A stretch of DNA of 64,000 bases from Ampullaceana balthica. Taxonomy: Eukaryota > Mollusca > Gastropoda > Lymnaeidae. The notes beneath the pieces were generated by a model. It was given only the letters and a program-made list of their open reading frames with translations. It was not told the origin of the DNA and ran no database searches. The stretch is taken from the NCBI GenBank assembly GCA_944989445.1, contig CALYLW010000038.1, forward strand, positions 1,785,313 through 1,849,312. Reading direction: 5' to 3'. Positions 37,618 to 64,000 of this stretch are shown one piece after another; within the stretch, counting starts at the first letter, position 1; each line of letters begins with the position of its first letter. A program made the translations under genes and the position numbers.

Positions 37618-39372
37618 ACATGGCCGCACGCAGGGGGTGGGGTTCGTACGTTCGAACGAACCCCCTTTTGCGAATGTGTGCCCTTTTTTGAAGAAAAAAA
37701 TAGATCTTGACATTATTGACAAAAATGATCAAATAGATACAATATTACTAGACTTCTCAAAAGCATTTGACAAAGTTCACCACCTTAGTTTACTTAAAAA
37801 ACTTAACTACTTTGGAATCTCAGGTTCCTTACATCACTGGATCCAAGACTTCCTTTTGGGCAGGGAGCAAACTGTAATAATTAATGGATCTAAATCTGCA
37901 CCAATAAAGGTTAACTCAGGAGTTCCACAAGGAACTGTGCTAGGTCCCTTACTCTTTTTAATTTATATAAATGATTTACCCAACAACATCTCAACAGGTA
38001 CAAAAGTTAGGTTATTTGCTGATGATTGTATAATCTATAGAACAATTAAATCAGAACAAGACAGCAAAATTTTACAAAAAGACTTAGATGAATTGATAAA
38101 ATGGGAAACTAACTGGAGTATGTCTTTCCACCCAGAAAAGTGTCAACTGTTAAGAGTAACAAAGAAAAAGAAACAAATAAATTCAAAATATTACATTCAT
38201 GGAAAAGAACTGACCCAAACTAAAGATGCAAAATACTTAGGAGTCTTAATAAATGAGAAACTATCATGGAATCCCCATGTCAATGAAGTTATTAAAAAAT
38301 CAAACAAAACCTTAGGCTTTATAAAAAGAAACTTTAACAAATGTAAAAGAGATATAAAACTAAAATGCTACCTCACTTTGGTGAGACCTGTACTAGAATA
38401 TGCATCTTCTGTATGGGACCCATCCACCAAAGAAAACATTGATAAACTAGAACAAATTCAAAAAAGAGCTGCCAGATTCATTACTGGAGAATATTCGAAA
38501 CTGACAAGAATAACACCATTAGTTAAATCATTAAACCTTGAAACACTAGAGGATAGAAGAACCAAGAGCAAAGTAGTAATCATACATAAAGCAATTAATT
38601 CTAATTTAGAAATACAACACAAAGATAACTTAATACAACCCTCAGATAGACATAAGGATAAAAACACCTTTCTTATTCCGTAGCAAGAACAAACACATAC
38701 AAGTTTTCCTTCTTCCCGTCCGGAATTCGGGCGTGGAATGGGTTGCCTGAAGAATCCAGGAAAACCAACACTTTATCAACATTTAAATCTCTAATAAAAA
38801 TGCAGGACTAAACACAAACCATAGATAAGCGTAGGACGCAATAATCTTCTGTATAGAAGGAGCGTCTGTAAACAGATAAGATAAGATTGAGAGATTTTGG
38901 GATCACACTACAGAATATGAGGGGCCAGTGTTATGATGGCTCTGCATCTATGTCGGGCGCTGTCTCAGGAGTTCAAGCGCATATTCTGCGAGAGGCTCTT
39001 TGATGGTGTACACACACTGCAGCATTTATGGCTTAAACCTAGTGATCATCTTATAACAAAATTTGTAAAAACGGCCTATCACACACGAAAACAATACGCT
39101 AACAGACCGAGTGCTTAACACAAAATAATATATCAGGGCGTAAGTGCCGGCTCACTAATGCATTTCCAGGGAAAATGGAGTTATCCTTTCTGCGACACTC
39201 CTTATGCGAATCTTCGCTCGTTAAGGGAGCAACTTACTCCATAAAAATGTTGCTCGTTACGCGAAAATCTCGTTATGAGAGGTGCTCGTTATGAAAGGTT
39301 TGTCTTATTGTAACATGAAATGCCTTCGCGACAAGTTTACGAACCCCCCTTAAAAAAGTCTGGGTACGGCCT
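37618..39372. mobile_element. DNA element disrupted by the LINE
   Basis: Left end GGCCGCACGCAGGGGGTG with GGTTCGTACGTTCGAACG; right end TACGAACCCCCCTTAAAAAA then GTCTGGGTACGGCC. These pair imperfectly as inverted ends, suggesting one element holding the LINE. Boundaries are approximate. Confidence 0.45.
37700..38890 (+). mobile_element. 5'-truncated Jockey/CR1-type LINE with reverse transcriptase
   Basis: An open frame to the TAG at 38681 encodes the RT core: LLDFSKAFDKVHH, SGVPQGTVLGPLLFLIYIND, the catalytic FADD at about 38017, and KYLGVLINEKLSWNPHV, then a thumb with YLTLVRPVLEYASSVWDP. RT copies LINE RNA at the target. The endonuclease and 5' RT fingers are missing. The first residues (before about 37690) come from the host element, not the LINE. 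The 3' UTR ends in an AGATA tail and matches 7110-7345. The frame has no internal stop, so insertion is recent. Confidence 0.92.
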
Positions 39373-44990: not shown

Positions 44991-45733
44991 TGTGGCGTCC
45001 TAAGAATTTTCTGAAATGTTATCGGGATGGCCTGGTGAAATATGACGGTGGTTTGGTGTTCACAATGGCTGGTGGTGTCATGATGACAGGAAATGGTTAT
45101 TTCGTTCGAGGGAGTGTTTAGAGGAATCAGGAAGTTGAGTGCTGGTTGGATTGAGGGGGGAAGGGGGACCGTTAAATCCTTAGATCTTGATTGAACAATT
45201 CGTTACTTTGATCGATTGATCAAATGAATGAATGTGCTGCACTTGTGTGTTACTGCGTGGTGAAGAAGTCGGAGTTAATTTCAAAATGTTTTCCCAGAGT
45301 CTTTGGGGCGTAACACGAGAGATATGGCCACGGGGGCACCCCACCATCCCTATGGGGTCAGCCTTGCATATATCGAAAACATTGCCAGTGATATTCATAT
45401 TTGTGAAATTTTTAGTCTAAAAATAATGTTCGCTAATTTGCACATGAATGCGGCTACGTGTCCTTTTCGACTATTTACGTTAGTTTGTTGATATTTACGT
45501 CACGCTTGTAATTACTTCCGGTTAAGACACATTTTGTCAGAAAAATAAAAACTTTTAGTTTCTGCAGGCATGAATTGCCATCATATTGTTTAAACCTATT
45601 CACACGGAGCAACAACAACAAAACAAACAAAAAAAAACACCACAAAACGGAATCGTTGTGTTGATGGTAGTATAGCATATGCACACAAGATACATAAGTC
45701 ATAAGTTAGACATACAAGAAATGACGCTGCATC

Positions 45734-46342
45734 ATGGGGTGTGGTGGTAGTGTGCTGACGTGTTACTCCAGCGGTGCAGCACAGAGGCGGAGACACACCG
45801 AACCAGCCATTCCCACCAACGCTCACCCCACAATCACGATTCGCTCCCCTCGGTCTGGCCATGACCACCACCAGGGGAGCGTGTCGCCGATGAGGGTCAC
45901 CACCAGAGGGCGTTCGCACAGCGCGCCCATCTTTATAGACAGTAAAACGAAAGACGAGCTGTTGGAAAATAAACAAAGTCTGGCCAAGGATCAGCCACCA
46001 TCCCTGCCCGCTAAGAATGACTTGCAGAAACAGCAGCCTTTAAAAGATGCCTTTCCCGACCCGGTCGCGGAAAAGAAACCGTCTTCAAAACTGACGTCGA
46101 ATTCAAATGTTACCCCGCAGACGTCGGTCTGGGACCAGACTCAGGTCAAGAGTGACGTGGGACAGACATCCGTCAGCAGCAGGCAAAGTTGTGCTCCTGG
46201 CAACTACATCCACGTCATTCCGTCTACGCCCACAGTTGAGCGAAGGGTCGTGCCTGTCCAAAAAGATGGTTTTCAAGTTCAAAGGCGAGAAACAAAGCAA
46301 GAGAGCATGAAAGATGGGGCAAAACTTGTCACAATTTTAATT
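45734..46342 (+). CDS. calpain alternative first exon A (MGCGGS N terminus)
   Basis: The exon opens ATGGGGTGTGGTGGTAGT, coding MGCGGSVLTCYSS, and runs 203 codons to donor GTAAGC at 46343 in phase 0. Gly2 with Ser6 fits the N-myristoyltransferase consensus and Cys3 (with Cys10) is a likely palmitoylation site, so the product should be membrane-anchored if Met1 is the start. The remainder is polar, rich in Ser, Thr, Pro and basic residues, with no domain I recognise, and is probably disordered. Codon use is more GC-rich than the surrounding intergenic DNA. The donor choice is mine; it is the first good GT after which the frame becomes low-complexity. Confidence 0.7.
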
Positions 46343-49300
46343 GTAAGCATCTTAACAAAAGGCATTTTCGGTTGTTTTTCGTGTTTTTTTGTTGTTGTTG
46401 TTTTTTTAAATAGCGTTATGTCTAAAATTGTTTTATTTTTAACCAGATTCTGCATCTAAATTAACTAAATCTTTTCTTTAAAAAAATTTTTTTTTGAAAG
46501 TTTAAAAAAAAATTATACAGTTGGTTAACACTTTCTGGATAGGACAAGGTTAACTGACATATATAATTTATAATAGGCTAGAGTGAAATATATACTTTAT
46601 CTGGGTAAGGGACATTTTCATACGCAACTAATCTACTCGTGGCAAAACTGCTGTTTAATATTCTCATAAACCTACTGTCATTGCGAAACATCATAAGTTG
46701 AAGTCGCATTTCCTCCGACGTCACAGCTCTAATTTAAATGACTTCTCGTTCTGAAGTGCGACTGTGGACACTGGTCATCAGGCCAGTCGTGGCTTTTATT
46801 AGTTTTAGACCCTCTTCCCGTCCCTTACCCCGCCACGTTTCAGCTGTTGAGATGTTCTTAGTTCTACCGGCATTCAAATTGTGAAATTTTCTCACCGTAT
46901 CACTACTTAAGAATCCGTTTGTAAAAGGAAAAAAAAACAACAACTCAATGATAACAGGGTCCGACGAGATGGCACTGCATCTGGCAACGTCATAAATATA
47001 ACTTGGTAACTCGTTTATTTATATTTAGAGACATTACGCTGCCACACGATCACCGCATTGCACATTATTTAACTGTACTGCATTCATTTAACGTTAAGTT
47101 TGTGGGATATGTTTTACTATTATGCAATGACCCTATAATGCGTGTGATGTGGAATTTTAGGAATATAAAAATTGGGTCTATATTATCCATATACTTTATA
47201 CTGTGCCAAGATAGTGTGCGGTTATACTAAGTGTTTATCGATTATTACTGTCTTCAATGAATTTGCTCGATTGCTTTTTCTGAACTGAAATGTTTTCATT
47301 GGATACGCCCGATAGTAAATTGTGTAGTCAAGCCGTAACAATGTTTGGTTTCTGAAGCTTGTATATGTTAATATGTACGAAACTTGAGCTTTTTTTTTCC
47401 AATGGGATGTGCCAGTAGTCATGACCATTCTTGGGCGAAGATTCCGGAGGTTTCAAATTCAAATGAAATTGTTATCAATGGTGAACAAGTATCAGTGTCA
47501 GTATCTGCTCTAAGTGAAGTTAAACTTAAACTTATGTTACAGGATGAGAAGTTGCAGAGAACAATGATTATACGAGATGATACGATACATACATTCCCCA
47601 CCTTCCCAGATAGTATCCCGAGTAATACTTCAAAAGTGCAGCAACATTACTTGGATTCGAAAGGAAGCCAGGTCACTGGATATTCCGGCCATTCATTTTC
47701 GGATTATTCTGATGCAAGTTATTCATATGCAACTTCGGTATGTAAACTATGTAAAATTTAGTTTTTGGCCTATGTCTATGTTACTATGTAAATAATGTAA
47801 TGTAGTAGCCAGTTATTTAGCATATCACAGCTGTATTTCTTACTCTGAATTCTGGAAGCTTTAAAATTTAAGTTATAAGTAGAATTTGAAGAAATGAAGT
47901 CACAATATTAATATTTAACTAGGGCAGCGGAGCTACATATACTTTTCTACCTTCTTGAACATCTTGAAAGAAGTATGTTGTAGTAAAAACTCCATGAGTA
48001 ATAGTTATATGGTATTACCATTGGCTGGTTTCTTATGCTAATTGCATGACTCATTTTGGCCTACTGGGGAAAAATGGTTGTACCAACGGCTGATATGATA
48101 ACTTAACCAATAGTGGGCATGTCCCACGAGGAATCAAAATAAAAATACAGCAACATTGACGTGATGGAATCAGGCTGGTTAACACTGGTGGTATGGTCAG
48201 GCAGTGGGCAGAATCAAACAAATTAGTTTGGAATCATATGTGATAGGCTCATTGAATGGCATGCGTTAGTTAAAGGATTAGCCTAAATAGTGATAGTGAT
48301 AGTCATAGTCATAAATGTTGAATATCTGTCTGCAAGTTAGGTTAGGCTAATTCAACTAATTGAGTATTATTGTTAACTAAAAGTAAAAGACTAAAATTTA
48401 GACATCATTCATTTATAGGTTGACCATTCGGTCTTAGTATGCTGTGGTATGATGTCAATATCCTTAATTAGTAATATCATTCATAGGCCAGGCACTATGA
48501 TAGGCTATTTGTTTATGTCAGTTGTATTTGAAATTTTGAGCTGGAATGCCTAGTAGGCCTATGAGATAGGCCATAGAACCAAATAATGGACTTTAAAATC
48601 TATATATATAATTCTCTTCGTGGTCGGACCCTGCGAGGCAACAAGAAGCTGCATGTGCAACAGAGCGTGACGAATGACCCTCGCTCGGGTCAACTAAACA
48701 CTGTTGGCAAGCGTGGTGGGATGAAATGAAAAAAAAAGGGGGGGGTGGGAGTGGGTGGCAACAATGCACTTGCGTTCACTTGCATTGTTCCTTCACAGTA
48801 AATGTGAGATTCGTAGTGTACTGGTTATCACGTCCGCCTCATACGTCGATGGTCCTGGGTTCAAGCCCCAGCGAAAACATTGTTTTTTTTTAATTTTTAA
48901 AAATGTCTGTTTGTGCCCGTTCTTTTACCCCTTTATTGCCAACACTAGCTGATTTAGTTACGGGTGAAGACTTCCTGAAAGACACAGTTGTCAAAATGGG
49001 ATGGGTTTGGGCAAACGACTGTGATTGAATGAAAAGAAGGAATTCTGGAGAGACCCGCGGCGTAGCATACGCCGCAGACTTGCTCATAATAGACAGTGCA
49101 AAGAATGGATGGGGGTTGAGAGTACAGACACAAAAAGCAGCACAAAGTAAGTAAAAAAATAGCGAGTAAGCATGGAGACAAGCACACTGAGGTTGTTGTT
49201 ACCCGCCTCCCATTTAATACGACCATCCCTTAAACATAAACTGTGATTGGCCGACCCTAGCGAGGGTTAGTCATGTTTAGGGTTGTTAATTGCGTGTTGT

Positions 49301-52300
49301 TGTTTTCTGTTGTTTTTTTAAAACCGATTATCGATTATGTAACTCTGATTTTAAACCGATTATCGTTTTATAGCTGACTTCATAGAAGTTAGGGGTGTAC
49401 CGAATTTCTCCTGCAAACGTCTAGAAACCAACAATGAGTTGGCAGTCCCCCCCCCCAAACCGACGTTCACTCGCGTTGTTTTGATTTCTTCGTGCTGTAG
49501 TTTGTGTCCGTTATTTCTCCACTTTCTTTGCACTCTCCATGAGCAAGTCTGCGGCGTATGCTATGCCGCGGGGCGTCTAGTTAGATATTAATTTAAATTG
49601 TTTGATTTCTGACACATATTTTTTTAATTTTTTTGTGTGGACATTTTATTCATTTTGCAAAGAATGGATCGCAAAATTAATGTTACGATTTTAAATACAA
49701 ATTTAAACACACTCCAAATGTACATATTCAACTAAGACTTGTTTGAAGTCATCGTTTGTTTTTTTATAGATTTATAAATATTTATATTTTCACTTGTCAC
49801 TCGTATGATCATTATCGATAGTTGGATTAAATTAGCAGAAAATCAGAAATCCTTTAAAAATTTAATATTCTCTAACTCAAAACAATGACATGAAGTTGAA
49901 ATACTAAAATGTATTATTCAATTCTGTGAGCTGACATGTTGCAGTATTATTAGTCCCACTCTTGATTACCCCAAAATCTCCCATCTTAAACTTAAACATT
50001 TTGGTACCGCCTAGCCCTTGATATAAAAAAAATCTGATTTTTATTTATTATAACAATGCCAATAGAATTTCGCCTTTTTGTATCCCTTTGTAAAGACAAT
50101 GCTGTTCAGTTTCAATTTTAATTGTTACTTATGCAAACACAATTTTTTCAACCTATTGCAATGTGATAAGACTCAAGAGGAATATGAGGAGGTCCTTTAT
50201 AGCCTGCGGCCTGGACAGGTCTACAAAGACCCAGAATTCCCTGCTAACAATGAAGCTTTATATTTGAACCCCAGGCAACAAGTTTTTGGTGATATACAGT
50301 GGCTGAGACCTCAGGTATGAACTTCTATTGAACTATGAATTAAATGTGACAATCAATTATATTGATCACCTTGGAATCAGAATGGTTGCTTGGAAGTTGC
50401 TAGAATTTTTATTGATTTTTAATATAAAGCTCTCATATATTGTTTCATGATTATGGTCAATGAATAATGTTGGTATTTATTAGTGCTGTTAACGATTAAT
50501 TTAAATTTAATCTTTAACTTTGGAAAAATTAACGATTAATTAATCCTAAATCGTTAATTTCGATTAAAGCCAAAAATTTTAATTTATGGTGTCATAAGAA
50601 CATTTATTAAATGTACTTGTCGAAAATCGAAATAACACTGGAATGTCTTCTTTATATGTCATCTTTTAACCAACAACGCAAGAAGACAAGTGTATTGACA
50701 TTATTTGGTTTAAGTGATTGGCGGGTCTTATTGACAATATAATTCAGCCGAGCTGAACAATCGTTCACATACCTTTAAATTGTCTCAGCTGAAGTTTCCG
50801 ATACTGTAGTGGATGTTTGGTTTGCAGGTGATATGTAAGCGAAGTGTTAGAACTATGGTAGCAATGTTCCCTTTAAGCAGCGCGGCTGCACAGATATTAG
50901 ACCATCGCCACGCAAGAGTTTAGAATCACCACGCAGCAAATTCTGTAAAATATTTCACCAAAAATTGACGTGCAACTTTGCACGGAAGTTTTTTTTAAAA
51001 ACTTTGCACACAGACCAACGAAGCTTAGACTTAGAAGGAACATCACATGGTAGGCAAAAGATTTCTCTCAATGGACACAATAACCCTTATTAACATTTTG
51101 AACATTCACATCAGTCAATAGTTTAAAACCAAAATGTTCGTGTAATCGTCCGGAAATTAGTTTATATTTATCGGCCGAAATATTTTGACTTCCAGTAAAT
51201 TTATAAGTGGTGGTTCGATGAATCGTTAAAATTTTTTAACGATTAATCGAGAACTTAATTGTTAATTTCCGCAGCCCTAGTATTTATGGATCATCACATA
51301 TTTACTTTAATATAACTTATTTATACACATATTTAATCAAAAAAATAATTTTTACCTTCATTTTTAAATAACATAATTTTTTTAACCTATTTGGCAGAAA
51401 CACCTAACTCTGCCTTTTAAATGTTAGGTTATATAAAAGCTAGATCATTTGAATTTTTGTTTATAAATCCTCCAAAAAGCTCATCAATTAAATTTTTTAA
51501 AGGAAATCCTTGGTGACAAATTTTATCCAGAGTTTGTGATAGATGGTGTTACACAAGGTGATATTAGGCAAGGCATTCTGGGAGACTGCTGGTTTTTGTC
51601 ACCATGTGCAGCTGTTTCCAAAAGAAAAAAAATAATGAGCAAGGTAAACAATCAATTTAAGCCATTAGTATAAGATTTTTTATTTTTTAAAAATATATAA
51701 TTTAAATAAATAAATATGTATAGATTAAAACAATATGTAAATATTTTTACTTATTGGTTGATAAAAATCTTAAACAATACTAATTTGCATTGTTTGTATG
51801 TTATTTAAAATATGCAATAATGCAAAAACAAATACTTTTAAATAGTATGTCTATTTGAAAATTCTATAAAATTATCATCAAAAATAAATTGGAAAATAGT
51901 GGGTGTTTCCTTATATAAATGTTATTCATGAAGATTCAGTGGCGTAGCTAGACCTTTTGCCGCCCGGGGCGGTCTCCAATTTGCCGCCCTTTCTAAGTAA
52001 ATAGTATCATGGTTTTTATAAATTAATAAACATAAATAAATAATTGTAATTGAAACAAAGTAAAGGTGGCGAACATTTCTACGATTGAATGCCATATTTA
52101 AGTTAGTGGCAATAAAGGAGACCAAATAAGATGTTATACCTATAAATACATATTTTTATAAAAATACGAGATAATTTTTTTTAAAGGTTACAAGAAAGTT
52201 ACTGAGGTTGCACCCCTCCCAATGAGACAAACGTGTTCCAAATTTACACCAAAAAATTAAATTACCAATTAGTATGGTTTTATTTTGTATTTATAAATAA

Positions 52301-55300
52301 ATGATTTAATTATATTTTTACAAAAAAATCGTGTACATTAGTATGTAAACATATTATTTATACATTTATTTTCTTAACTTTCATAGTAGAAAAATCGTGA
52401 ATTATGCTATCAAAATTTAAATAACTTGTTATATTTTGTTCTATGGACAATATTGCAAGATTTTGTAGTCTTAAGGGTCGGTAAACTTTTTGTCTGAGAG
52501 AACCATACATTATTTTTAAAACTAAAAATTCCAGTAAATGTGTGCATTTTGTGTAATTTCAACACTAATAGTACCATAATTATGTCTCTTAATTCTTTTT
52601 AATATCATTGTTATGAAGTTTATTGTTTATGCAATTCAAAGGAATCTGAATAAACGTTTTTTTTAAAAAGAATAGTCGAACATTTGTCTGAGAGCCAGAT
52701 GCAGCCATCAATAGAGCCACATCTGGCTCGCGAGCCATGGTTTCCCAACCCCTGTCTTAAATCATGCACTCATTGTGGAACGAAGATAATTTTCTATCAA
52801 CTTCAGTTTGGAGAAGCTCCTTTCACTACTAGCGACACTGATAACAATAATTGTTATAACAATTCTTAGAATACAAAATACACAAACAAATTGTGCAATG
52901 AAAACAATATACATGTATTTAAGCTTTATTTATAAACTAATACGACAAGCGGGCCTTTCCCTCCATTTTTCCAACGCAATGCCTCTTTTTGTAGTATAGG
53001 TACAGCCACAAAACCTGGATCTTTTTTCTTTCATTATGGAACTGTTCTTTATCAATGTAAATAAAATCAGTTATTTGACATTCAATTTCTTCACTTAGTA
53101 GGTTACATGGGATTATACATGAATATTTTCTTACATGGACATGCAACTGATCAAAGAGTTCTTTTAATTCCTTTATAATTCGATCCATGGATTAAAACAT
53201 TTCTCATTGTACTTCATGTTCTAAAGATAGGACCATGTCTTGTGAATTTTCCCCACTCACATGTTTTTCCCTTCTAACTTGGCGTTTCCTTTATTTTCTA
53301 CAAAGTAAATAAACGATTCAACAACTTTAACTTCGCCAACATCAATAACTATGTATCTTTTAATTTGACTAGTTTAATATTTGTGGGAAATATCTGGAGA
53401 GCTGTCAAATATCATACAAAAGTTTTTAGCTTACTTTATTTGGTCCATTATTGTTTTTCTCGCTGCACCTCTCAATAGGTCTATGAATTCATTTTGAATC
53501 ATTTTCCACAAATAGGAGACACTATATTTATTACCCATCTTAATTTGTACTAAATGTTCACATAATACTGGGTCGTACTTGGCCAACAAGTCCAAAAGCT
53601 CTAGAAAATGTCCTATATTTTTAATTGAATTGATGTCTTCCTCATGAATACTTTCACGATGACCTCTCAACGCCAAATTTTGTTTAGCTAAGAATCTAAT
53701 TATATCAAGTATTGTGAGAATTTCCTTTCATTTTTTCTTATTTCTTTATCAATATTCTGTTGTTGTAGATTATCAAAAGTTGCACCATGTCCAGTTCTTA
53801 TTTCTAATTTCTTCCATTGGGAAAATGATCAAATCTGCAGTAGACTCAACTCGTGTTGACTTATTCAGTAGACTCAACTCATGTTGACTTATTCAGTAGC
53901 CTCAACTCGTGTTGACTTATTTTGAGATTAAATTTCCACTATTTGTTAAAACTATTTTCCGTGTTAAAATTTGATTGGAAAAAATCACCAAACAGATGAC
54001 AGCAAAAAAAATATATAATTTTGTTCAATGGTGAATACACCATCCACGATCTTAACAAATTTTCACCATTATGCAAAATTTGGGAAAAAACAACAATCGC
54101 GATTAATCTTTCTTGTGAAAAATCGTAATAATTTTCACTAAAATAGACTAATTCAAACTATCTAAACATTACTTTAATAGGATATGCACAAAATTTTTAG
54201 TGAATAAACGTATTTTAATGAAACACACACATTTGGTTTGTGCTACTTTAATGAAAAAAACAAACAAAAAGAAAAAAAATAATAATAATTTTTAATAAAT
54301 TACCTTATAATAATTTACTGAAACTTAAACAGTAATATAAATTACTACTTGCAAGTTGTACACAATATTTGAACCACAATGCCATGTAGGTACTTTTTCG
54401 CGTTTCATTCTGTGCATGTCAAAAATCCACGCAATAACTGTCGTGGCGATAATAATAGTATATTCAGTCCAGCAGTGATTTGTTCTTTGTGTTTTTTTCT
54501 TATAAAAAGCGTCATCTGTGATGTATACCGCTTAATTTTCAAAACAAATCGATAACATTTTTAAATGATTTTAAATTTCTTAACGGTTTTGCGTTAGTTA
54601 TAACAAACAGTATGCAATAAAAAAAATGTCTTGAGAATCCATTAATTACGGCTCGAAAGTAAGAATATTTTATTTTCACCCGGGTTTTCCTCTCTCAAAA
54701 GAAAAAGGGCGGTTGTCCGAAAGGGCTGTACTTTTCAAATGCCCCCAAATGCCGCCCCCAAATCGTGTGCCGCCCGGGGCGGACCGCCAATGTGAAGATT
54801 TATAACTGTGGTTACATTGTATTTTAGAAACTTGGCAGTCATTCTTTAAGAGTTATCAAAGATGATGGCTAATAAGGCCATCACATCTAAGACAAGTAAT
54901 CTAATGAGATATACTTTTTCTGAAAACTATTTTAATGACTTTAATAGGATATGAGTGAGCGAAGTTGAGATAAATATAGTGCAAGGTTGAGATTAATATA
55001 GAGAAAGGTTGAGATTAATATAGAGCAAGGTTGAGATTACTATAGAGCAAGGTTGAGATTGATATAGAGCAAGAATGTGATAAATACAGGGCAAGGTTCA
55101 GACTAATTTGATTAAAATACAGAGCGAGCTGGAGATAAATAATGGTATTTCAAGGTTGAGGTAAATATTATAATGAATATAGAAAAAGCTTATGATAAAT
55201 ATAGAGCTATGTTACGATGAATATAAAGCAAGCTTATCACTTACATGTATATAGAGCAAAGTTTTTATATATATTTGAAAGTCAAAACACTTAAAAATAA

Positions 55301-58300
55301 ATATAAGCAATTTCAAATTTCGCAAACTGATAAAAAGAATAACTTTGAAATACATAACAAGTTTTTAACAAGATTTTAGTCAAGCAGACCAATTAATTAT
55401 TTTCATCAATTTTTTTTTCAAGATCATTCCAAAGAATCAGGTTCTCGCAGGCCCTGAGTATAGAGGTGTTGTTCGCTTCTTTTTCTGGCGATTTGGTCAA
55501 TGGGTACAGGTGATAATTGATGACCGCTTGCCTACTGTGAAAAGAAAATTGATTTTCGGCAGATGTACCCACCCTAGAGAATTCTGGGTTCCTCTGGTTG
55601 AGAAAGCATATGCAAAGTGAGTTCTTTAAGAGTAAGTTTTTTGTCATCAATTTAATAGGTTAAAGAAAGCAATAACTGAGAATACATAACATCTTGCCAA
55701 CAAATCAGAATATTATGTTTCATTTATTATTAAAAAATGTACACAATTGTGGTACACTGCAGAGATTCTCACCAGAATTTCAAAATATCTCTATAATTCC
55801 TAAAAGTATATTTAACTAATGTGATCTTTAAAGTTAAGGTTCAAGGCCTCACTTAAAAACAGTAAAAGATTCTTATAGAGTAATTTAACTTCTAGTTAAC
55901 GGTAAACACTCTTTAAATAGAGCACAACATTACTTGGGTATGCAGAGGTGAATTTTACACCCAAACATCACGGGGCAGGCACTAGTCTATTTGAAGTTAT
56001 TTAGCCCACTACATTGATATTTCTTTAAAGTTTGTCATAAGTTGGTTCTTTACCAGACTTTATGGCTGTTATGAGGCTCTGGGGGGCGGGATCACGATGG
56101 ATGCCCTTGTTGACCTAACGGGGGGACTGGCTGAGAGATTTGAACTCGTAGACTATGACCCATCATTGTTCAGGTTTATCCACACAGCACGTCGAGCTGG
56201 AGGTTTCATTGCATGCTCACGGAAGGTTAGTTTCACAATTGTAGTACCCTTATGTTACAAACATTTTTACAAGACATTTTATTCACAAAGATTATATATA
56301 TCTAGGAGCAGTGGATTTACATAAATTTCAAGATTAGGGAACCTTCTCATAATTTTTACATCCCTAAAAATACATTTTTGTGTTACTAAAGGTGGGACAC
56401 ACTCTAAAAAATTGAACACATAGATAAAACAAATGCCCCTTCACAATTTGTTCAGTCGAAGCAAAAAAGTTGTGCACATCACAAAAACGTTCAAATTAAA
56501 TTGAGGGACTTAAAAACCAGTATTTAATTATATTTCTTCATATTTCAAACACTTTGATCTTGAATAAAAGGAAATAATAAGTGTAAATGATATTGAATTG
56601 TGACTTGTAAGTTTAGTGATCATTGAATTACTTTCTTTATCTTCCTTAAGGGAGACTGGAAATTGTCCAATGTGGCAGATCCAAATGGATTGATTCCTGG
56701 CCATGCTTACACAATTATTAACACATTAGTGGTAAGGTTTGTTTTCATGTATCAACAGTATGTAAAATTATTTCAGTAGAAGTCAACTTTTTGTGATTTG
56801 CTAAATACATGTATTGTACACAACCATTTCCAATAAAATATCAATTGTGTTGTTCGTCCATCGTGGTCAATATCAATATCAATTGTAATTACATGACAAC
56901 ATAACGTATACTCAAAGATGATCTGATAAAAAGGATGGGTTTACTCCAGTGATGCCAACTTAAAAATTTTATGTAACAATATTGGAACAAAAAAATAGTG
57001 TATACATATTTTTTCTTCTTATAAATTTTCTCACATTTACAAAAACTAAGCGTATGATTATTTTTAAAAATTTAATTGGAAAAAGATGTGTTTAGGATCA
57101 TACTTAACATCATGGTAGACTATGAGTAGCCTTGAAGATGTGTTTAAGATCATACTGAACATCATGGTAGACTATGAGTAGCCTTGAAGATGTGTTTAAG
57201 ATCATACTGAACATCATGGTAGACTATGAGTGGCCTTGAAGATGTGTTTAATATCATACTGAACATCATGGTAGACTATGAGTAGCCTTGAAGATGTGTT
57301 TAAGGTCATACTGAACATCATGGTAGACTATGAGTAGCCTTGAAGATGTGTTTAAGATCATACTGAACATCATGGTAGACTATGAGTGGCCTTGAAGATG
57401 TGTTTAGGATCATACTGAACATCATGGTAGACTATGAGTAGCCTTGAAGTTGGCTGGGAGGGGAAGCGTACTTCTAACATTTTTATTGTCTTTAATTTGT
57501 TCAGCTGAAGCACAAAATGGGAGAAGAAAAACTGCTGTGCATAAGAAACCCTTGGGGAGATGGAGCCAAGTGGAAAGGGTCTTGGAGTGACCAGTAAGGA
57601 GAACTTGGTTGGTTTAACCAAATTATATTCAAAACTTTACAACATAGCTTTATTTTTTAAAATATATTTTGGGGTCAGGATCAGAGTTGCACCAATTCAT
57701 TGCTAATCACATTGTCACTGATTAACCAGTACTCAGCTTTTGAATATCCTCATTAGCACCGTGATGTTAGAAAAGGATATTCAGAGATGAGATGTCGGCA
57801 AACTTGGCTTTATTGCTACTTGATATTTGCTATAGAAGTTGAACCAGCCTTTGTCAGAATCTCTGGCACATATTCGCTGTCTTACCTCAATTTTACACCT
57901 TTCTACTGCATCTTTGTCAGTGCTTATAAAACAAATGTTGCGATTTTGCTTTTCTTTTTCTCAAAAGGTTCTTACAGTTATAAGGTTCACATAATATAAA
58001 ATGCAAGGTAAAAATTATCAATCAGTAACATTCTAATGAAAATCAATTTACCCTGGAAGGGATTGTGGAGATATGATAAATAAAGTCAATCAAGATCTTG
58101 GTCCTGTAAATTTCTTGAAAATATTTCTTGCATGTCCTTTCAATGGATGGAGAGGTAAACAAGTAAGCTAGTCAGTCTTATAACAGACACAAATTGGAAG
58201 CTTACAATCACTTCAATCCAATGAAAACATTTTTCCAATATCCCCAACCACACAGTTATTGAAAACTTTAAACCATATGTCAGCTTTTAATAAATATGTG

Positions 58301-61300
58301 TTTTGTCTGGAATCAACATTTTGTAACTTAACTGTGCAGTGACGTCAACTGGCAGTGGGTGGACGATGACGTCAGGGAGAGTATCCTTGGCAAGCTGGAC
58401 AGTGCAGAGTTTTGGATGTCCTTTAGAGACTTCTTTCAGCAGTTTGGCGAAGTGACCATTTGCCATCTGAGCCCAGATTTTGATGGAGATGGCACACCAG
58501 ATGTTGTAGGTAAATGCAAACCATTGAATAGTCATAAGTAATGTCAGTAGAGGAGCAAGGTAAGATTAGGTCTAGAGGGGAAAACAAAGCAATTAAAAGG
58601 ATGTGCGTGTTTTTTTATAAGCCCATTCTTCAGCAGACGTTGAATGTTCCATTTAAGCTGCACGGCCGTGCAGATGACCGACGCCACGCATAATTTAAAT
58701 TTGACCATGCAGTAAGTTTTTAACAGGATAAAATAATATCTGTGTTTATGGGGTGTAAAATTTGGGGGGCCGGGTAATGGATGCTGCGAAACTTTGCACA
58801 TGAGTCTGTTATTTTGCACATGAGTCTGTTATTTTGCGCATGAGTCTGTTATTTTGCACATGAGTCTGTTATTTTGCACATGAGTCTGTTATTTTGCGCA
58901 TGAGTCTGTTATTTTGCGCATGAGTCTGTTATTTTGCGCATGAGTCTGTTATTTTGCACATGAGTCTGTTATTTTGCACATGGACCACCTAACCTCAGAG
59001 AGAACATTACAGACAATGCAAAATAAACTATTTGAAATATGTATTTGTTCCCAAGTCATTTATATCATTGATATTCTGAGCTCTTACCTACCAACCAAAT
59101 ATTCATGTGTACTGTGTCTGAAATACCATTGATATTCTGAGCTCTTACCTGCCAATCAAATATGCGTGTGTACTGTCTCTGAAATACCATTGATATTCTG
59201 AGTTCTTACCTGCCAATCAAATATACATGTGTACTGTGTCTGAAATACCATTGATATTCATGAGTTCTTACCTGCCAATCAAATATACATGTGTACTGTG
59301 TCTGAAATACCATTGATATTCTGAGTTCTTACCTACAAACCAAATATGCATGTGTACTGTGTCTGAAATATCATTGATATTCATGAGTTCTTACCTGCCA
59401 ATCAAATATACATGTGTACTGTGTCTGAAATACCATTGATATTCTGAGTTCTTACCTACAAACCAAATATGCATGTGTACTGTGTCTGAAATACTGCAAA
59501 AATGAAAACAACTGATTGAGACCACTGAACAATGCTTTAACATGAAATAATAAATCAAACTTGATTAATGAATAGCTTTACTTCTGGTTACAATTACAAT
59601 GAGTAAAGTTTTGATCATAACAAAGTTAGATAATTTTAGTAGCTGATAATATGTCAACTAAACTTGTGTTGTTATTTCCCCTTGTTTCTCCAGGCCACAC
59701 AGAGATGATCTGGGGTGAGTGGGTCCTGGGTAAAACAGCTGGGGGATCAAGAAACAATTTAAACAAATTTGCAACAAACGACCAATATCTGCTCAGCTTG
59801 ACTGAAACAAGTGAGAAGCTGTTATAAAAGAAATTATTCCAGTCATCTCATTATTTAAACATTTGTTTATAAAGACGTATTTAAATGTCGTAGGCCAGTT
59901 GAAGGGTATTGGTCTGTGTAGAGTGCTCTCCAGCACATAAACATGAAATTGGTTACTTTTTCAAATTATTTAGGTTTCAATATAATGAAACTAGGAAAAT
60001 ATAAAATTTATATTTATATAGTCTTTTGATGATGAATTTTTTTTTAAAGGAGGGGATGGTCTTGCCATTGAAGGCAAACAAAACATTGTGATATCTTTAA
60101 TGCAAGAGCATCGTCAGATCAGCAGAAATATCAAGCCCATGATGTATCAGATTGGCTTCTTCCTGTACCAGGTGACTTAACTTATTCAATAAGGAGGGTG
60201 TGTCTGGCAGTGTAATGACATTAGATTTGTCATAGAGTCCGCCAGTGCAATGACATTAGTTTTGTCATAGAGTCCACCAGTGTAATGTAGGGCTGTTATT
60301 GATTAATTTAAATTTAATAGTTAACTTTTGAAAAATTATCGATTAATTATTGGATAATTTCGATTAAAGCCAAAAATAGAAATTTATGACGTCATTAAAC
60401 TGAACATTTCTCAAGGATATTGAAAATTAAGAATATTTTGAAATAAATTTTATGACAATGTGTTGATACTTGATCGGATGTTTCTGCTGAAATGTGGTAC
60501 GTCAGCGATGTATTTGATCCTTTAAAAGAGAATTGTTTATGGCAGTGAACACAGTAAACTTTTTCACCATCTTCGACTTTGCCATCCACAGTTAGCTTAA
60601 AAACAAAATATTTGCTCAACTTTCTAATTATATGTTTAAATTTAACTGCGCTGAAGCTGTCAGCCATTTTTTAGTTGACGTCTGCCAGTCCACATAAAGT
60701 AATAAAATAAATTATAATATTACGCGGGAGAAGTTTGTACGTAAAAAAATATATAAATTATTATTAATTATTAATTATTTATTAATAAAAAAAAATTTAA
60801 TATTATAAATATTTTCTTTAATTTTAATCTAATTTTTATCAATTAAAATAATTTTAATCGATAAAAAAATTTAACGATTAATCGAGAAATTAATCTTAAT
60901 TTCCGAAGCCCTAGTGTAATGACATTAGATTTGTCGTAGTCTGCCAGTTTATGGTATGGATTGTTTCAGTATGTCAGTCTGTGTAATGAGATGGTTTATG
61001 TCATAGTGTCTCTGTAAGTTTTAAAAAAAAAGAATTTGAACCTAGCTGTTAGTCCAACACTAACCATGTTGTGCTGTTTCATCATTAACTTTAAAATATG
61101 CTTGTTCTAAAATTCTAACCTGATTTGAGATTATGATCACTTACTGAATTTGTAAGTATTTCTTTTCTTTATCTCTTTATATTTTCAGACAAATGATCGA
61201 CTCTATAAATTACCTCTTCAGTATTTTCGCTTTAATTCAGAATATGCCAAAACCAGTTTTTTCATCAACTACAGGGAAGTGAGTGGACGGTTTGAATTAG

Positions 61301-61404
61301 ATCCTGGATGCTACGTCATCATTCCAAGTACTTTTATTGAGGACTGTCCATCTCATTTCTTGCTCAGGGTATTTGGGGAGAAAAGGTTCTCCTTAAAAGG
61401 GTAA
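45734..61404 (+). CDS. calpain cysteine protease (catalytic core plus CBSW), with two alternative first exons
   Basis: Shared exons are 50171-50314, 51503-51643, 55423-55616, 56057-56225, 56651-56731, 57505-57593, 58340-58509, 59694-59810, 60050-60171 and 61189-61404; phases agree throughout and encode 480 residues. Either first exon 45734-46342 (203 codons) or 47402-47737 (112 codons) joins in phase 0, giving 683 or 592 residues. Catalytic residues are Cys in QGILGDCWFL (codon 51587-51589), His in GLIPGHAYTI (56702-56704) and Asn in IRNPWG (57547-57549). CBSW/domain III follows, from FWMSFRDFF to HFLLRVFGEKRF. Calpains are calcium-dependent intracellular proteases that cut regulatory proteins at limited sites. 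A TAA closes the frame at 61402, but GTAATT at 61401 could be a donor to penta-EF exons beyond the window. Introns carry several transposons and minisatellites. Confidence 0.88.
47402..47737 (+). CDS. calpain alternative first exon B (MGCASS N terminus)
   Basis: ATGGGATGTGCCAGTAGT codes MGCASSHDHS; 112 codons run to donor GTATGT at 47738 in phase 0. Gly2, Cys3 and Ser6 again form a dual-acylation signal. The rest is Ser/Tyr-rich and ends SDASYSYATS. It shares no obvious similarity with exon A beyond the first six residues. It cannot simply be spliced after exon A: the nearby acceptor-like AGs (47414, 47417) would give stops in the phase-0 frame. I therefore read it as an alternative promoter/first exon. 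Confidence 0.72.
48599..49580 (+). mobile_element. non-autonomous Helitron, 982 bp, in calpain intron
   Basis: Starts A|TCTATATATATAATTC and ends with hairpin GCGGCGTATGCTATGCCGC, then GGGGCGTCTAG|T; the A|T host site and CTAG end are diagnostic. At 48806-48880 it contains a tRNA-Val-like module (TACTGGTTATCACG, GGTCCTGGGTTCAAGC). An inverted partial copy of its own family (GACCCGCGGCGTAGC near 49053) makes it longer than the 525-bp copy at 25613. Confidence 0.9.
50171..51643 (+). CDS. calpain exons 2-3: start of protease core with catalytic Cys
   Basis: Exon 50171-50314 codes TQEEYEEVLYSLRPG to WLRPQ, the usual pre-catalytic calpain stretch (Y-DPEFPA, then W-RP). Exon 51503-51643 codes EILGDKFYPEFVIDG then the active-site block QGILGDCWFL. 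Both exons are whole-codon. The intron between them (50315-51502) contains an 799-bp hAT element at 50481-51279 with a nested MITE. Confidence 0.9.
50481..51279. mobile_element. hAT element remnant, 799 bp, in calpain intron
   Basis: Ends TAGTGCTGTTAACG and CGCAGCCCTA; GTATTTAT flanks both sides (50473-50480, 51280-51287). Related to 26413-27023 and 60288-60913. Confidence 0.88.
50862..51045 (+). mobile_element. MITE of the CAATGTTCC family nested in the hAT
   Basis: Ends CAATGTTCCCTTTAAG and CTTAGAAGGAACATC; same internal GCACACAGACCAACGAAGC-type right end as 35737-35903. Confidence 0.65.
51937..54792 (-). mobile_element. hAT transposon (ZMYM1/DUF4371-like) in calpain intron 3
   Basis: Left end CAGTGGCGTAGCTAGACC; TGAAGATT flanks both sides (51929-51936, 54793-54800). 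The right end CGGACCGCCAATG lacks about 25 terminal bases compared with 29624 but the target duplication is intact. The minus strand encodes transposase fragments: HRESIHEEDINSIKNIGHFL and LLDLLAKYDPVLCEHL (53431-53676), then MDRIIKELKELFDQLHVHVR (52937-53188). The catalytic core between them is missing. Confidence 0.92.
52470..52757. mobile_element. hAT MITE nested in the intronic hAT
   Basis: GGGTCGGTAAACTTTTTGTC at the left and GGTTTCCCAACCCCTG at the right, with GAGCCACATCTGGCTCGCGA inside: a sister of 41415-41748. TCTTAA flanks roughly match. Confidence 0.82.
54950..55240. repeat. degenerate ~24-bp repeat (AGCAAGGTTGAGATTA)
   Basis: About ten imperfect units with ATATAGAGCAAGG, between the intronic hAT and calpain exon 4. 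Confidence 0.8.
55423..57593 (+). CDS. calpain exons 4-7: rest of catalytic domain with His and Asn
   Basis: Exon 4 (55423-55616) has WRFGQWVQVIIDDRLPT and EFWVPLVEKAYAK; exon 5 (56057-56225) LYGCYEALGGG and DLTGGLAERFEL; exon 6 (56651-56731) the His block GLIPGHAYTI; exon 7 (57505-57593) the Asn block CIRNPWGDGAKWKGSW. These are the standard PC1/PC2 landmarks, in order and with none of the catalytic residues altered, so the enzyme should be active. Confidence 0.9.
57080..57455. repeat. 52-bp minisatellite in calpain intron
   Basis: Seven units with ATCATGGTAGACTATGAGT end about 50 bases before the acceptor of exon 57505. Confidence 0.94.
58340..61404 (+). CDS. calpain exons 8-11: end of PC2 and CBSW domain
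   Basis: Exon 8 (58340-58509) has WVDDDVRESILGKLDSAEFW and CHLSPD; an acidic DFDGDGTPD stretch follows. Exon 9 (59694-59810) has WVLGKTAGGSRNN and DQYLLSL, exon 10 (60050-60171) VISLMQEHRQ and IGFFLYQ, exon 11 (61189-61404) FINYREVSGRFELDPG, CYVIIPSTF and FLLRVFGEK, all typical of calpain domain III. The frame ends FSLKG-stop unless a donor at 61401 is used. Confidence 0.85.
58643..59008 (+). mobile_element. CAATGTTCC-family MITE with an internal 20-bp array
   Basis: Starts AATGTTCCATTTAAGCTGC and ends GGACCACCTAACCTCAGAG with AGAACATT. Ten 20-bp units TGAGTCTGTTATTTTGCACA fill 58800-58985 and look like an amplification of the element's own GCACATG-G right end. Confidence 0.72.
59050..59495. 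repeat. ~61-bp tandem repeat in calpain intron
   Basis: About seven units containing ACCATTGATATTCTGAG and GTACTGTGTCTGAAATA; alternation of unit types (CTGCCAATC, CTACAAACC) suggests pairwise duplication. Confidence 0.92.
60288..60913 (-). mobile_element. hAT element remnant with BED finger, 626 bp, in calpain intron
   Basis: Ends TAGGGCTGTTATTG and CGAAGCCCTA; GTGTAATG flanks both sides (60280-60287, 60914-60921). The minus strand from 60667 encodes MADSFSAVKFK, KVYCVHCHKQFSFKG and SNTSLTYH, the same BED finger as at 26666. No catalytic domain. Confidence 0.92.
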
Positions 61405-61419
61405 TTGGATAAAACTAAG

Positions 61420-61655
61420 CAAAGGATTTTTTTTTGGTGTCCCATAACCTTGTGGTCGGAGGGGGTTCTAATGTTTCCATTAGAGCTTTCTCAGGGCTTG
61501 GTAGACCTTGGAGGCGCCCATCTCCTCTCCAGGTCAGCGGAGGACTTTTTAGCGATAGTCATTCATCAACATTTTTATTGTGGCTTTGACGTGGGCTAGA
61601 TCCCACGCCATTCAGCTTGTGAAGCAAGCACACTATTGACTTCGCTATCCAGCAA
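61420..61655 (-). mobile_element. tRNA-derived SINE-like element
   Basis: On the minus strand it starts near GGATAGCGAAGTCAATAGTG (A-box region) and GTGGGATCTAGCC (B-box-like), and ends in a run of A at 61429-61436. It directly follows the last calpain exon seen. Confidence 0.5.
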
Positions 61656-61717
61656 AGGATAGTTACCCTCTAACTGAATTCAACTTACATGAACATTAAC
61701 TTTTGGCTCTTGAGTCA

Positions 61718-61905
61718 TCCTATATAATAAAAGGCAATTTTCTGTCCAGTCATCTATAGCGATTGGTCCCTCAAACACATATGACTCCTACAGCCAATCA
61801 TATTGAACACGTTTAGGCGGACTTTCAAAACGAGTTATTTTTGGTGCAGTATTTCTTCCAAGACTTTATTTTGAGTTATTCGCATTGGGATTTATAGTCA
61901 AATGT
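61718..61905 (+). mobile_element. Helitron 5' fragment
   Basis: A|TCCTATATAATAAAAGGC start; nearly identical to the first ~190 bases of 24650. Confidence 0.7.
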
Positions 61906-61949
61906 ATAATATAAAAACAAGGTATTAGTATCAGTAGGCCTGACAGGAC

Positions 61950-62790
61950 GCAGTGGCGTAGCTAGGGGGGTGCAGGGGGAGACATATGTCCCCGGGCGCC
62001 ACGTTAGTGGGCGCCAAAATGAGTATTAACATTAATTATTTAGATTTATTTTGATGTAAACTAATGTATTTCAAGTACGTTTGCAAGATTGAAATTTGGA
62101 GCTCCATAAATATCTTCTTTACAAACCAGTTGGCAAGCATGATTTTGGCCCCATTGAGCATTAAGGGGCGCCATGTGGATTTTTAAACTAAAAAAGTAAC
62201 CATTAAAGAATAATTTTTAGGTTTTGTTCCGATACATTCCAAAGACGCAGCAAGCCTTGAAAGGGTTATCGTAGAGAAAATGAAATATGATAACATACCT
62301 CTAGCCGACTGTCGGTCACAATAACATAATAATGCTTATGTAATGACTGGGGATATATCCGGCCTTCAACGGCGAATATGTGCCAGAAATCACAGAGCAT
62401 TGTTTGCAAACTGTGACAACCACAGCTTAAACTCAGCTAAACATAGGGTTGCCAGACGTCCGGCAGAAGGAGGTACATGTCCTCCTTTTTAGCTCAATGT
62501 TCTCCGTCTGGTAGGTAAAGCTAAAATCGTTTAAAATGTCGGGCTTCTCTTACATTTTATATTAAAATTTTTATGTATCGTTTTTAAAACTATTACATCG
62601 TATGTTTACTTAAAATAAAAATAGATTCTGGCTATTTTTAAAACTTACAAACCAAGTCAAGGACGAAAAATCTAGTTCTAGTTTAAAAAAATATCGCAGT
62701 CATTGAAAATGAAATGGAAGAAACAGCAGTATTGGAGGTTATGAGCCGTCTTCACACAACATTGTAAGTTTTGAATTTTAAAAAAAAGTA
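61950..62790. other. transposon debris, no gene
   Basis: CAGTGGCGTAGCTAGGGGG at about 61953 is the left end of a hAT related to 29624; AGGGTTGCCAGACGTCCGG near 62446 starts another short element. No matching right ends were fixed. Confidence 0.5.
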
Positions 62791-64000
62791 AAAAAAACAA
62801 GTTTTTGACTATAAATCCTTTATGTACGAGACGTAACTAAAAGAATGTTCATTATAATACGCAGCGCAAGACCATCCAACAATACAAAATTGTAGTTGTG
62901 TCTTAAAACATGTTTAATATAATGCGCACCGATCAGGAATATGTTTATAAAAAGTGTTGTCAGTAAAATACGCACCTTATTGCGCGACAGAAAGGTCGTT
63001 CAAATAATACGCACCGCGACACTCTATCTCAAAAAATAACATGATACAGAGGAATAAATAAAATAATCTAAAAAATCATTAATTCAATTACGGTACATGT
63101 GATCGATCTGAAATTTTGATACAAAGTTTTTATCATCGCCACCAAACTGCCTGCTAAAGTTTTGGCGACAAGCAATCAAGGGTGCAGACACCACGAGTTA
63201 ATATAAAGGATTTAATAAGAAAAACCCGTAAAAAACCAAGTTTTTGACTATAAATCCTTTATGTACGAGATGTATCTAAAAGAATGTTCATTATAATACG
63301 CAGCGCCAGATCATCTAGAAATACAAAAATGCAGTTGTGTCGTAAAACATGTTTAATATAATGCGCACCGATCAGGAATATGTTTATAAAAAGAGTTGTC
63401 AATAAAATACGCACCTTATTGCGCGACAGAAAGGTTGTTCAATATAATACGCACCGCGACGCTCTATCTCAAAAAATAGCATGATACATAGGAATAAATA
63501 AAATAATTTAAAAAATCAATAATTTAATTACGGTACATGCGATCGATCTGAAATTTTGATACATAGTTTTTATCATTGCCTCCAAACTGCCTGCTAAATT
63601 TCAGCTCGCTGGCTTACGATGAAGTGGGTTAAAAATCGATCAAAAGTTTTGGCGACAAGCAAGGGCGGGCGGTCGGGCGGTCGGCCGCAGACACCACGAG
63701 TTAATATAAAGGATTTAATTTTTTTTAAACGTAAAAAACCAAGTTTTTGACTATAAATCCTTTATGTACGAGATGTAACTAAAAGAATGTTCATTATAAT
63801 ACGCAGCGCCAGATCATCTAGAAATACAAAATTGCAGTTGTGTCGTAAAACATGTTTAATATAATGCGCACCGATCAGGAATATGTTTATAAAAAGAGTT
63901 GTCAATAAAATACGCACCTTATTGCGCGACAGAAAGGATGTTCAATATAATACGCACCGCGACGCTCTATCTCAAAAAATAGCATGATACATAGGAATAA
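62790..64000 (+). repeat. tandem array of the ~500-bp dispersed repeat
   Basis: Three units start at about 62792, 63227 and 63729, each with CAAGTTTTTGACTATAAATC, ATGCGCACCGATCAGGAATA and GCGCGACAGAAAGG; the first is internally deleted and the third runs off the window. A single inverted copy is at 2460-2975. Unit junctions are TTAATATAAAGGATTTAA next to CGTAAAAAACC. Confidence 0.9.

What the first reader, a model, noticed from the sequence alone, without database searches (positions are those of the whole stretch)
45734..50314. Two alternative calpain first exons that each encode an N-terminal acylation signal
Seen: exon A starts MGCGGS and exon B starts MGCASS; both end in phase 0 before the same acceptor at 50171; the rest of the two exons is unrelated. 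Established: Gly2 plus Ser6 fits N-myristoyltransferase, and Cys3 next to Gly2 is a usual palmitoylation site. Inference: two promoters make two calpain isoforms with different N-terminal regions, both delivered to membranes. Textbook animal calpains are not N-myristoylated, so an anchored pair would be unusual and could confine the protease to membrane substrates.
Basis: partly seen in the sequence, partly recalled or inferred. Interest (0 to 1): 0.85.

Follow-up and report, generated by a model that had tools for sequence, protein, structure and literature searches.

The report
Membrane-anchored snail calpain, two N-termini
A freshwater-snail gene for a calpain protease appears to have two interchangeable first exons that both begin with a fatty-acid attachment signal, and that signal turns out to be common to a little-noticed family of calpains without EF-hands found in many animal groups.

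Summary
Exon A (45734-46342, MGCGGS) and exon B (47402-47737, MGCASS) both end in phase 0, can join the acceptor at 50171, and are unrelated to each other. They are the window's only MGCxxS starts; 200 shuffled windows gave none with 112 or more open codons. The shared exons encode an intact calpain core plus C2-like domain.

Exon B is well supported: a Lymnaea stagnalis protein has it, MGC included. Exon A is open and reaches a good donor, but two searches found no relative, so its use as an alternative start is inferred.

"Unusual" needs changing. Of 83 full-length hits without a penta-EF-hand domain, 64 start MGxxx[S/T], residue 6 being Ser in all 64; 0 of 21 EF-hand-bearing hits do. Named carriers span nine phyla. 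Where Cys is missing at residues 3-6 (14 of 64), 11 have three or more Lys/Arg nearby. This looks like an ancient lipid-anchored calpain family, which the papers I found do not describe.

In this snail and its kin the second catalytic-core Ca2+ site is eroded.

No transcript, acylation or localisation data were available.

The parts
45734..46342 (+). Exon A: candidate first exon, 203 codons, MGCGGS start, Cys3 and Cys10, ends phase 0
   Evidence: Open frame with in-frame stop upstream and GTAAGC donor; no relative found
47402..47737 (+). Exon B: first exon, 112 codons, MGCASS start, ends phase 0
   Evidence: Same sequence type and MGC in Lymnaea P0001, score 320 against 30.8 +/- 5.5 for shuffles
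47610..47737 (+). Possible internal exon (3' part of exon B) to which exon A could splice in frame
   Evidence: Acceptor ending 47609, pyrimidine fraction 0.80, frame kept into exon 2
50171..50314 (+). Exon 2, first shared exon, phase 0 at both ends
51503..51643 (+). Exon 3, with catalytic Cys (GDCWFL)
55423..55616 (+). Exon 4
56057..56225 (+). Exon 5
56651..56731 (+). Exon 6, with catalytic His (GHAYTI)
57505..57593 (+). Exon 7, with catalytic Asn (RNPWG) and a changed Ca2+ site 2 residue (Lys for Glu292)
58340..58509 (+). Exon 8, with a changed Ca2+ site 2 residue (Ser for Asp321)
59694..59810 (+). Exon 9, domain III
60050..60171 (+). Exon 10, domain III
61189..61400 (+). Exon 11, end of domain III; a short last exon is expected beyond, not found in the window by one pattern

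Best explanation
The gene encodes a PEF-less calpain (catalytic core plus C2-like domain) that is tethered to membranes from birth. Met1 is removed, Gly2 is myristoylated by N-myristoyltransferase, and Cys3 is then palmitoylated, holding the protease on the membrane by a long, poorly conserved and probably disordered linker. The lipid anchor replaces the EF-hand domain and small subunit as the means of bringing the enzyme to its substrates. The gene has two start exons, A and B, each supplying its own anchor and a different linker (203 or 112 residues), so that two promoters can make membrane isoforms that differ in reach and partners while sharing one catalytic body. Shown: exon structure, reading frames, catalytic triad, the motif in most full-length PEF-less relatives, conservation of exon B. 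Inferred: use of exon A, two promoters, acylation, localisation, disorder of the linker, and that the doubling has a function.
For: Gene model with eleven coding exons per isoform in frame; Pfam core plus domain III; Gln, Cys, His and Asn of the active site intact in the window. Exon B conserved in Lymnaea including MGC. 64 of 83 full-length PEF-less hits start MGxxx[ST], all 64 with Ser6, against 0 of 21 PEF hits, Fisher p 2.6e-11; five more have the motif at a later Met, four of them at residue 23 or before and one at 42. On a tree of 69 rows (68 of the 120 hits plus the window), 58 PEF-less rows, the window included, form one side of a branch with SH-aLRT 100 and run from lancelet to molluscs. 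Among the 64, 50 have Cys at residues 3-6; of the 14 without, 11 have at least three Lys/Arg in residues 2-20, so the second membrane signal looks swapped rather than lost. Precedent: P. falciparum calpain is myristoylated at Gly2 and palmitoylated at Cys3 and Cys22, and this places reporter constructs at the plasma membrane (PMC2746569, abstract and passages). Precedent for alternative N-termini from two start sites: Aplysia AplCCal1 (PMC5650170, section 16).
Against: Exon A has no detectable relative. Codon-usage score is low for A (-0.07) and for B (-0.05) against +0.11 for the body on which it was trained, so it supports neither. The shared acceptor is weak. Exon A could instead splice into the 3' part of exon B at 47609, which has a better tract and keeps frame. 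14 of 83 full-length PEF-less hits have no such motif within their first 60 residues; some may be gene-model errors, some real loss. The fewest changes of the motif label on the 69-row tree is 13. P. falciparum calpain was localised to the nucleolus when tagged at full length (PMC2746569, abstract), so an acylation signal need not mean a fixed membrane place.
Confidence: 0.6

Rival explanations
1. Only exon B is a real first exon. Exon A is an open frame by chance, or an exon of another transcript, and the gene has one N-terminus, acylated like the rest of the family.
For: Exon B alone is found in Lymnaea; exon A has no relative at E <= 10; of the named close relatives looked at, none showed two N-termini in the list.
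Against: No MGCxxS start with 112 or more open codons in 200 shuffled windows; frame open by chance in 15 of 5000 shuffles; good donor in phase 0; GC 53% against 34-39% in the flanks. The protein database is clustered at 90% identity and Lymnaea shows one model, so a second isoform could be hidden.
Confidence: 0.27
2. Exon A is a real first exon but joins the 3' part of exon B (acceptor ending 47609), so that B is partly a shared exon and the isoforms differ less than the reader thought.
For: Acceptor with pyrimidine fraction 0.80 against 0.50 at 50171, in frame from A into exon 2; the 3' part of exon B is well conserved with Lymnaea.
Against: Eight in-frame AGs exist in exon B, so one good-looking site is not much evidence; no transcript.
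Confidence: 0.15
3. The MG start is not acylated in vivo. The N-terminus matters for something else, such as N-terminal stability or autolysis, and the enzyme is soluble.
For: No lipid data; some relatives lack the motif (19 of 83 at Met1); Aplysia AplCCal1 is inactivated by N-terminal cleavage (PMC5650170, abstract), so calpain N-termini can have other roles.
Against: Ser6 in 64 of 64 motif carriers and the Cys-for-basic exchange are hard to explain otherwise.
Confidence: 0.12

Closest known systems
Lymnaea stagnalis predicted calpain (P0001)
   Same: Body 92% identical over 479 columns; same first-exon sequence type as exon B with MGC
   Different: Annotated with 5 extra residues before MGC (MFLYT) and without exon A; only one isoform was seen
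Bilaterian 'Truncated' calpains (named in PMC5650170, section 15 part 1)
   Same: Catalytic core plus one C2-like domain, no PEF; Lottia, Crassostrea, Aplysia, Limulus, Strongylocentrotus and Branchiostoma are named as members
   Different: That paper has no occurrence of myrist-, palmit- or acylat- in its main text; I did not match its AplTRUNC1 accession to the Aplysia hit P0004
Aplysia AplCCal1 / AplCCal1alt
   Same: Mollusc calpain with two N-termini from two start sites
   Different: Classical calpain with a PEF domain; the alternative N-terminus starts MSNYY, read from its cloning primer, not MGC
Plasmodium falciparum calpain
   Same: Shown to be myristoylated at Gly2 and palmitoylated at Cys3 and Cys22 (PMC2746569)
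   Different: Said to belong to the calpain-7 family (PMC3583800, abstract in listing); long N-terminus with a nuclear signal; the shared acylation is convergent (inference)
Kinetoplastid calpain-like proteins (recalled)
   Same: Acylated N-termini (recalled)
   Different: Protist proteins of other architecture; not examined here
Src-family kinases and G-alpha-i (recalled)
   Same: MGCxxS dual acylation, or MGSxxS plus basic residues
   Different: Unrelated proteins; only the signal is alike

Membership tests
Calpain family C2 protease | Calpain catalytic domain with Cys/His/Asn triad | tested here: met
   PF00648 E 1.3e-94 over the full profile; triad present
Calpain family C2 protease | C2-like domain III | tested here: met
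   PF01067 E 5.1e-35
Classical calpain | Penta-EF-hand domain at the C-terminus | tested here: inconclusive
   None in the translated exons; the Lymnaea orthologue ends GPLLSR right after domain III, but the window's own last exon was not found
PEF-less bilaterian ('Truncated') calpains | Placed with PEF-less relatives and away from PEF calpains | tested here: met
   58-row side of a branch with SH-aLRT 100 (quick tree, 69 rows, 10 of the 21 PEF hits as outgroup)
PEF-less bilaterian ('Truncated') calpains | Same clade as the published AplTRUNC1 | not tested
   Accessions of hits were not compared with XP_005105403.1
N-myristoylated proteins | MG start with permitted residue 3 and small residue 6 | tested here: met
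   Exon B by pattern; exon A read from the translation; the pattern (PROSITE PS00008 form) is recalled
N-myristoylated proteins | Lipid actually attached | not testable with these tools
   Needs labelling or mass spectrometry
Genes with alternative first exons | Two transcripts with different first exons and a shared acceptor | not testable with these tools
   No RNA reads; the own-genome search did not complete

The most novel reading that the evidence does not exclude
PEF-less calpains are an ancient bilaterian family of lipid-anchored proteases in which a myristate plus a palmitate (or a basic patch) took over the targeting role of the EF-hand domain. In lymnaeid snails the gene doubled its anchor exon, giving two membrane isoforms with different tethers, while the second Ca2+ site of the catalytic core decayed, so that control may have shifted from calcium towards membrane placement.
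Probability: 0.35. Interest if true: 0.75.

Novelty: new variant of a known kind. Interest (0 to 1): 0.55.

Why it matters
Calpain biology is built largely on soluble, EF-hand, two-subunit enzymes (general knowledge). A family found from lancelet to snail whose members mostly carry an MGxxxS start would be a separate, membrane-resident branch, open to a simple test (G2A mutant, N-myristoyltransferase inhibitor). It would bear on the activity and regulation of truncated calpains, which PMC5650170 calls an open question (section 20). The two-exon arrangement in this snail would give a natural pair of isoforms with one catalytic body and two anchors, useful for asking what the linker does.

Tried and rejected
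Rejected: that A and B arose from one another (score no better than shuffles, 145 of 500). Rejected: that the paper on Aplysia AplCCal1 already describes this gene; its alternative N-terminus starts MSNYY and the enzyme has a PEF domain. Weak and not used: exon A against the long planorbid N-termini (Bulinus score 71, shuffles 45.8 +/- 7.6, 2 of 200 as high; Biomphalaria 47, 108 of 200). An apparent match of exon A to Lymnaea's exon B (57, shuffles 31.4 +/- 5.3, 0 of 200) was not upheld by exon A against the window's exon B; it was not pursued further.

A first count by a simple Cys pattern (50 of 68) was replaced by the alignment-based count, because the pattern missed several sequences. One search's 84 rows include the window's own isoform B; the 83 and 64 used here leave it out. 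Of the 120 listed hits, 21 PEF rows served as control and 16 others were dropped before the count: cut short, no Met start, catalytic Cys column empty, or 480 or more residues after the Cys (listed; one of the 16, P0039, does start MGSGQS). Rows are not independent: P0016/P0054 and P0061/P0063 have identical aligned bodies and N-termini.

Limits: the homologue search scored only 7991 candidates and listed 120 of 1880, so presence or absence of the family in vertebrates, flies, nematodes or cnidarians was not tested. ARAGORN found no tRNA. No structure was predicted.

Literature: nine of the ten searches were about calpains with acylation, invertebrates or truncation, the tenth about Ca2+ ligands. 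None of the listed titles or abstract starts describes an acylated animal PEF-less calpain. The lists were capped: 25 of 38 papers, 12 of 60, 3 of 23,984 (uninformative). PMC3315469 and PMC3563603 have no occurrence of myristoyl-, palmitoyl- or acylat- in the main text (word search only). Only open-licence PMC papers are held.

Full report
What was checked. The window is animal DNA from a freshwater snail close to Lymnaea (inference: best hit L. stagnalis, 82% identity over the whole isoform B query; 92% over the aligned body; family Lymnaeidae). The calpain gene lies on the + strand. I rebuilt it exon by exon: exon A 45734-46342 or exon B 47402-47737, then 50171-50314, 51503-51643, 55423-55616, 56057-56225, 56651-56731, 57505-57593, 58340-58509, 59694-59810, 60050-60171, 61189-61400, with GT/AG borders and one open frame. 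The protein matches Pfam PF00648 (1.3e-94) and PF01067 (5.1e-35), and m-calpain 1kfu (5.5e-103). The last few codons were not found in 61401-64000 by one pattern for the Lymnaea ending.

Is it more than chance? MGCxxS occurs twice on both strands of the 64 kb, and both are these exons. Over 200 dinucleotide shuffles of the window the motif appears 0.36 times per window, and never with 112 open codons. Each MGC is the first in-frame ATG after an in-frame stop. An unseen upstream exon could add residues before MGC only by splicing in at an AG between that stop and the ATG. Exon A has none there (AG ends at 45718, next at 45750); exon B has one, ending at 47388, without a visible pyrimidine tract before it.

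Exon B is well supported. Lymnaea has MGCTTSHEHSW...FSDFSDASYSYATS at the same place, alignment score 320 against 30.8 +/- 5.5 for shuffles. Exon A rests on its frame, donor, base composition (GC 53% against 34-39% around it) and start motif. Its frame stays open in 15 of 5000 shuffles of itself. Two searches with it, one under the whole isoform's length limits (residues 1-225) and one for shorter proteins (residues 1-203), scored 633 and 130 candidates, none at E <= 10. A fast-evolving exon missing from single-isoform annotations would give the same result, so this is absence of support, not refutation. Exon A could also run into the 3' part of exon B at 47609|47610, in frame and with a better acceptor tract than 50171.

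The larger finding is in the relatives. Of the 120 listed hits (of 1880), 83 have no EF-hand domain in the Pfam column, start with Met, have the catalytic Cys aligned, at least 95 residues before it and fewer than 480 after it. 64 of these 83 start M-G-[not E,D,R,K,H,P,F,Y,W]-x-x-[S/T], and residue 6 is Ser in 64 of 64 although Thr was allowed. 0 of the 21 hits with EF-hand domains do (Fisher p 2.6e-11). The sequences are related and a few rows are duplicates, so that p is only indicative. Five further hits, Lymnaea P0001 among them, have the motif at a later Met (residues 4, 5, 6, 23 and 42), which could be annotation; 14 have none in the first 60 residues, four of which still start MG. Carriers named include molluscs, an annelid (Owenia), a nemertean (Tubulanus), a bryozoan (Watersipora), a brachiopod (Lingula), arthropods, echinoderms, a hemichordate (Ptychodera) and a lancelet: nine phyla. 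Two other annelids in the list do not fit (Ridgeia MGPINS; Capitella MCCSPQ, a short model).

Tree. On a quick tree of 69 rows (the window plus 68 of the 120 hits, chosen by me), built from the columns after the first exon, 58 PEF-less rows form one side of a branch with SH-aLRT 100, with arthropods and lophotrochozoans in separate groups and the deuterostomes outside them. One row without an EF-hand hit (Arctopsyche, 543 residues after the Cys) falls among the PEF calpains. The fewest changes of the motif label is 13, so losses or gene-model errors are not rare.

The make-up of the motif argues for membrane anchoring. 50 of 64 have Cys at residues 3-6 (42 at Cys3). Of the 14 without, 11 carry three or more Lys/Arg in residues 2-20; nine of these rows are named bivalves and two are unnamed. 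Mean Lys/Arg is 3.1 without Cys and 1.4 with. This is the same trade as between palmitoylated and basic-patch Src-type starts (recalled). Between the start and the catalytic Cys lie 123-460 residues, and the part before exon 2 scarcely aligns outside Lymnaea, as expected of a tether. Exon A has Cys3, Cys10 and three Lys/Arg in residues 2-20; exon B has Cys3 and one.

Ca2+ sites. By the ligand list in PMC4057710 (table passage), the side-chain ligands of site 1 (Asp96, Glu175 in calpain-2 numbering) are intact in the window. In site 2 Glu292 is Lys and Asp321 is Ser, while Asp299 and Glu323 are kept. In the 100 non-PEF rows aligned (99 hits plus the window), Glu292 is Glu in 95, Lys in 4 (window, Lymnaea, Bulinus, Biomphalaria), gap in 1. 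Asp321 is Asp in 93, gap in 2 and Ser, Ile, Pro or Asn in 5, four of which are this snail and its kin (window, Lymnaea, Biomphalaria, Physella). All 21 PEF rows keep both. The catalytic triad is kept. Relaxed or altered Ca2+ control in these freshwater snails is an inference.

What is known. P. [quoted passage not shown] The Aplysia survey names a bilaterian Truncated family with core plus C2L and has no acylation words (PMC5650170: outline, sections 15 part 1, 16 and 20 read, the rest by word search). PMC3315469 and PMC3563603 have no such words in the main text. I found no paper describing acylation of animal PEF-less calpains in the searches named under Tried and rejected. Subscription papers, in particular older crustacean calpain work, were not seen.

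Verdict. The claim that acylation is exceptional in animal calpains is replaced by a broader one: it looks like a family trait. The doubling of the first exon is plausible (about 0.65-0.7 that exon A is a real calpain start exon, by either splice route) but unproven.

Noticed in passing
window 57505-57593 and 58340-58509 (exons 7 and 8): Core Ca2+ site 2 ligands Glu292 and Asp321 (calpain-2 numbering) are Lys and Ser here; at least 93 of 100 non-PEF rows and all 21 PEF rows keep them, and most changes fall in Lymnaeidae, Planorbidae and Physidae.
   Followed up: partly
bivalve relatives such as P0018, P0022, P0028, P0044: Bivalve members start MGSxxSK with a basic patch in place of Cys3, a Src-like second membrane signal.
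   Followed up: partly
P0049 Scylla, P0085 Penaeus indicus: Decapod gene models whose N-terminus is not MGC although close relatives (Portunus P0056, Penaeus vannamei P0051) start MGCGxSQ; they could be non-acylated alternative starts or annotation errors.
   Followed up: no
P0020 Potamilus and P0038 Sinanodonta: The catalytic Asn column reads Ser in both of these mussels; could be misalignment or an altered triad.
   Followed up: no
window 57083-57449, 58793-58982, 59062-59494: Tandem repeats of 52, 20 and 61 bases in calpain introns; arrays are common over the whole window, for example 13207-15469, 30-base unit, 75.6 copies.
   Followed up: no
window 60395-60670 (-), 52762-52929 (-), 37619-38683 (+): Transposon remnants: BED zinc finger and hAT dimerisation region (both inside calpain introns) and a reverse transcriptase frame upstream.
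   Followed up: partly
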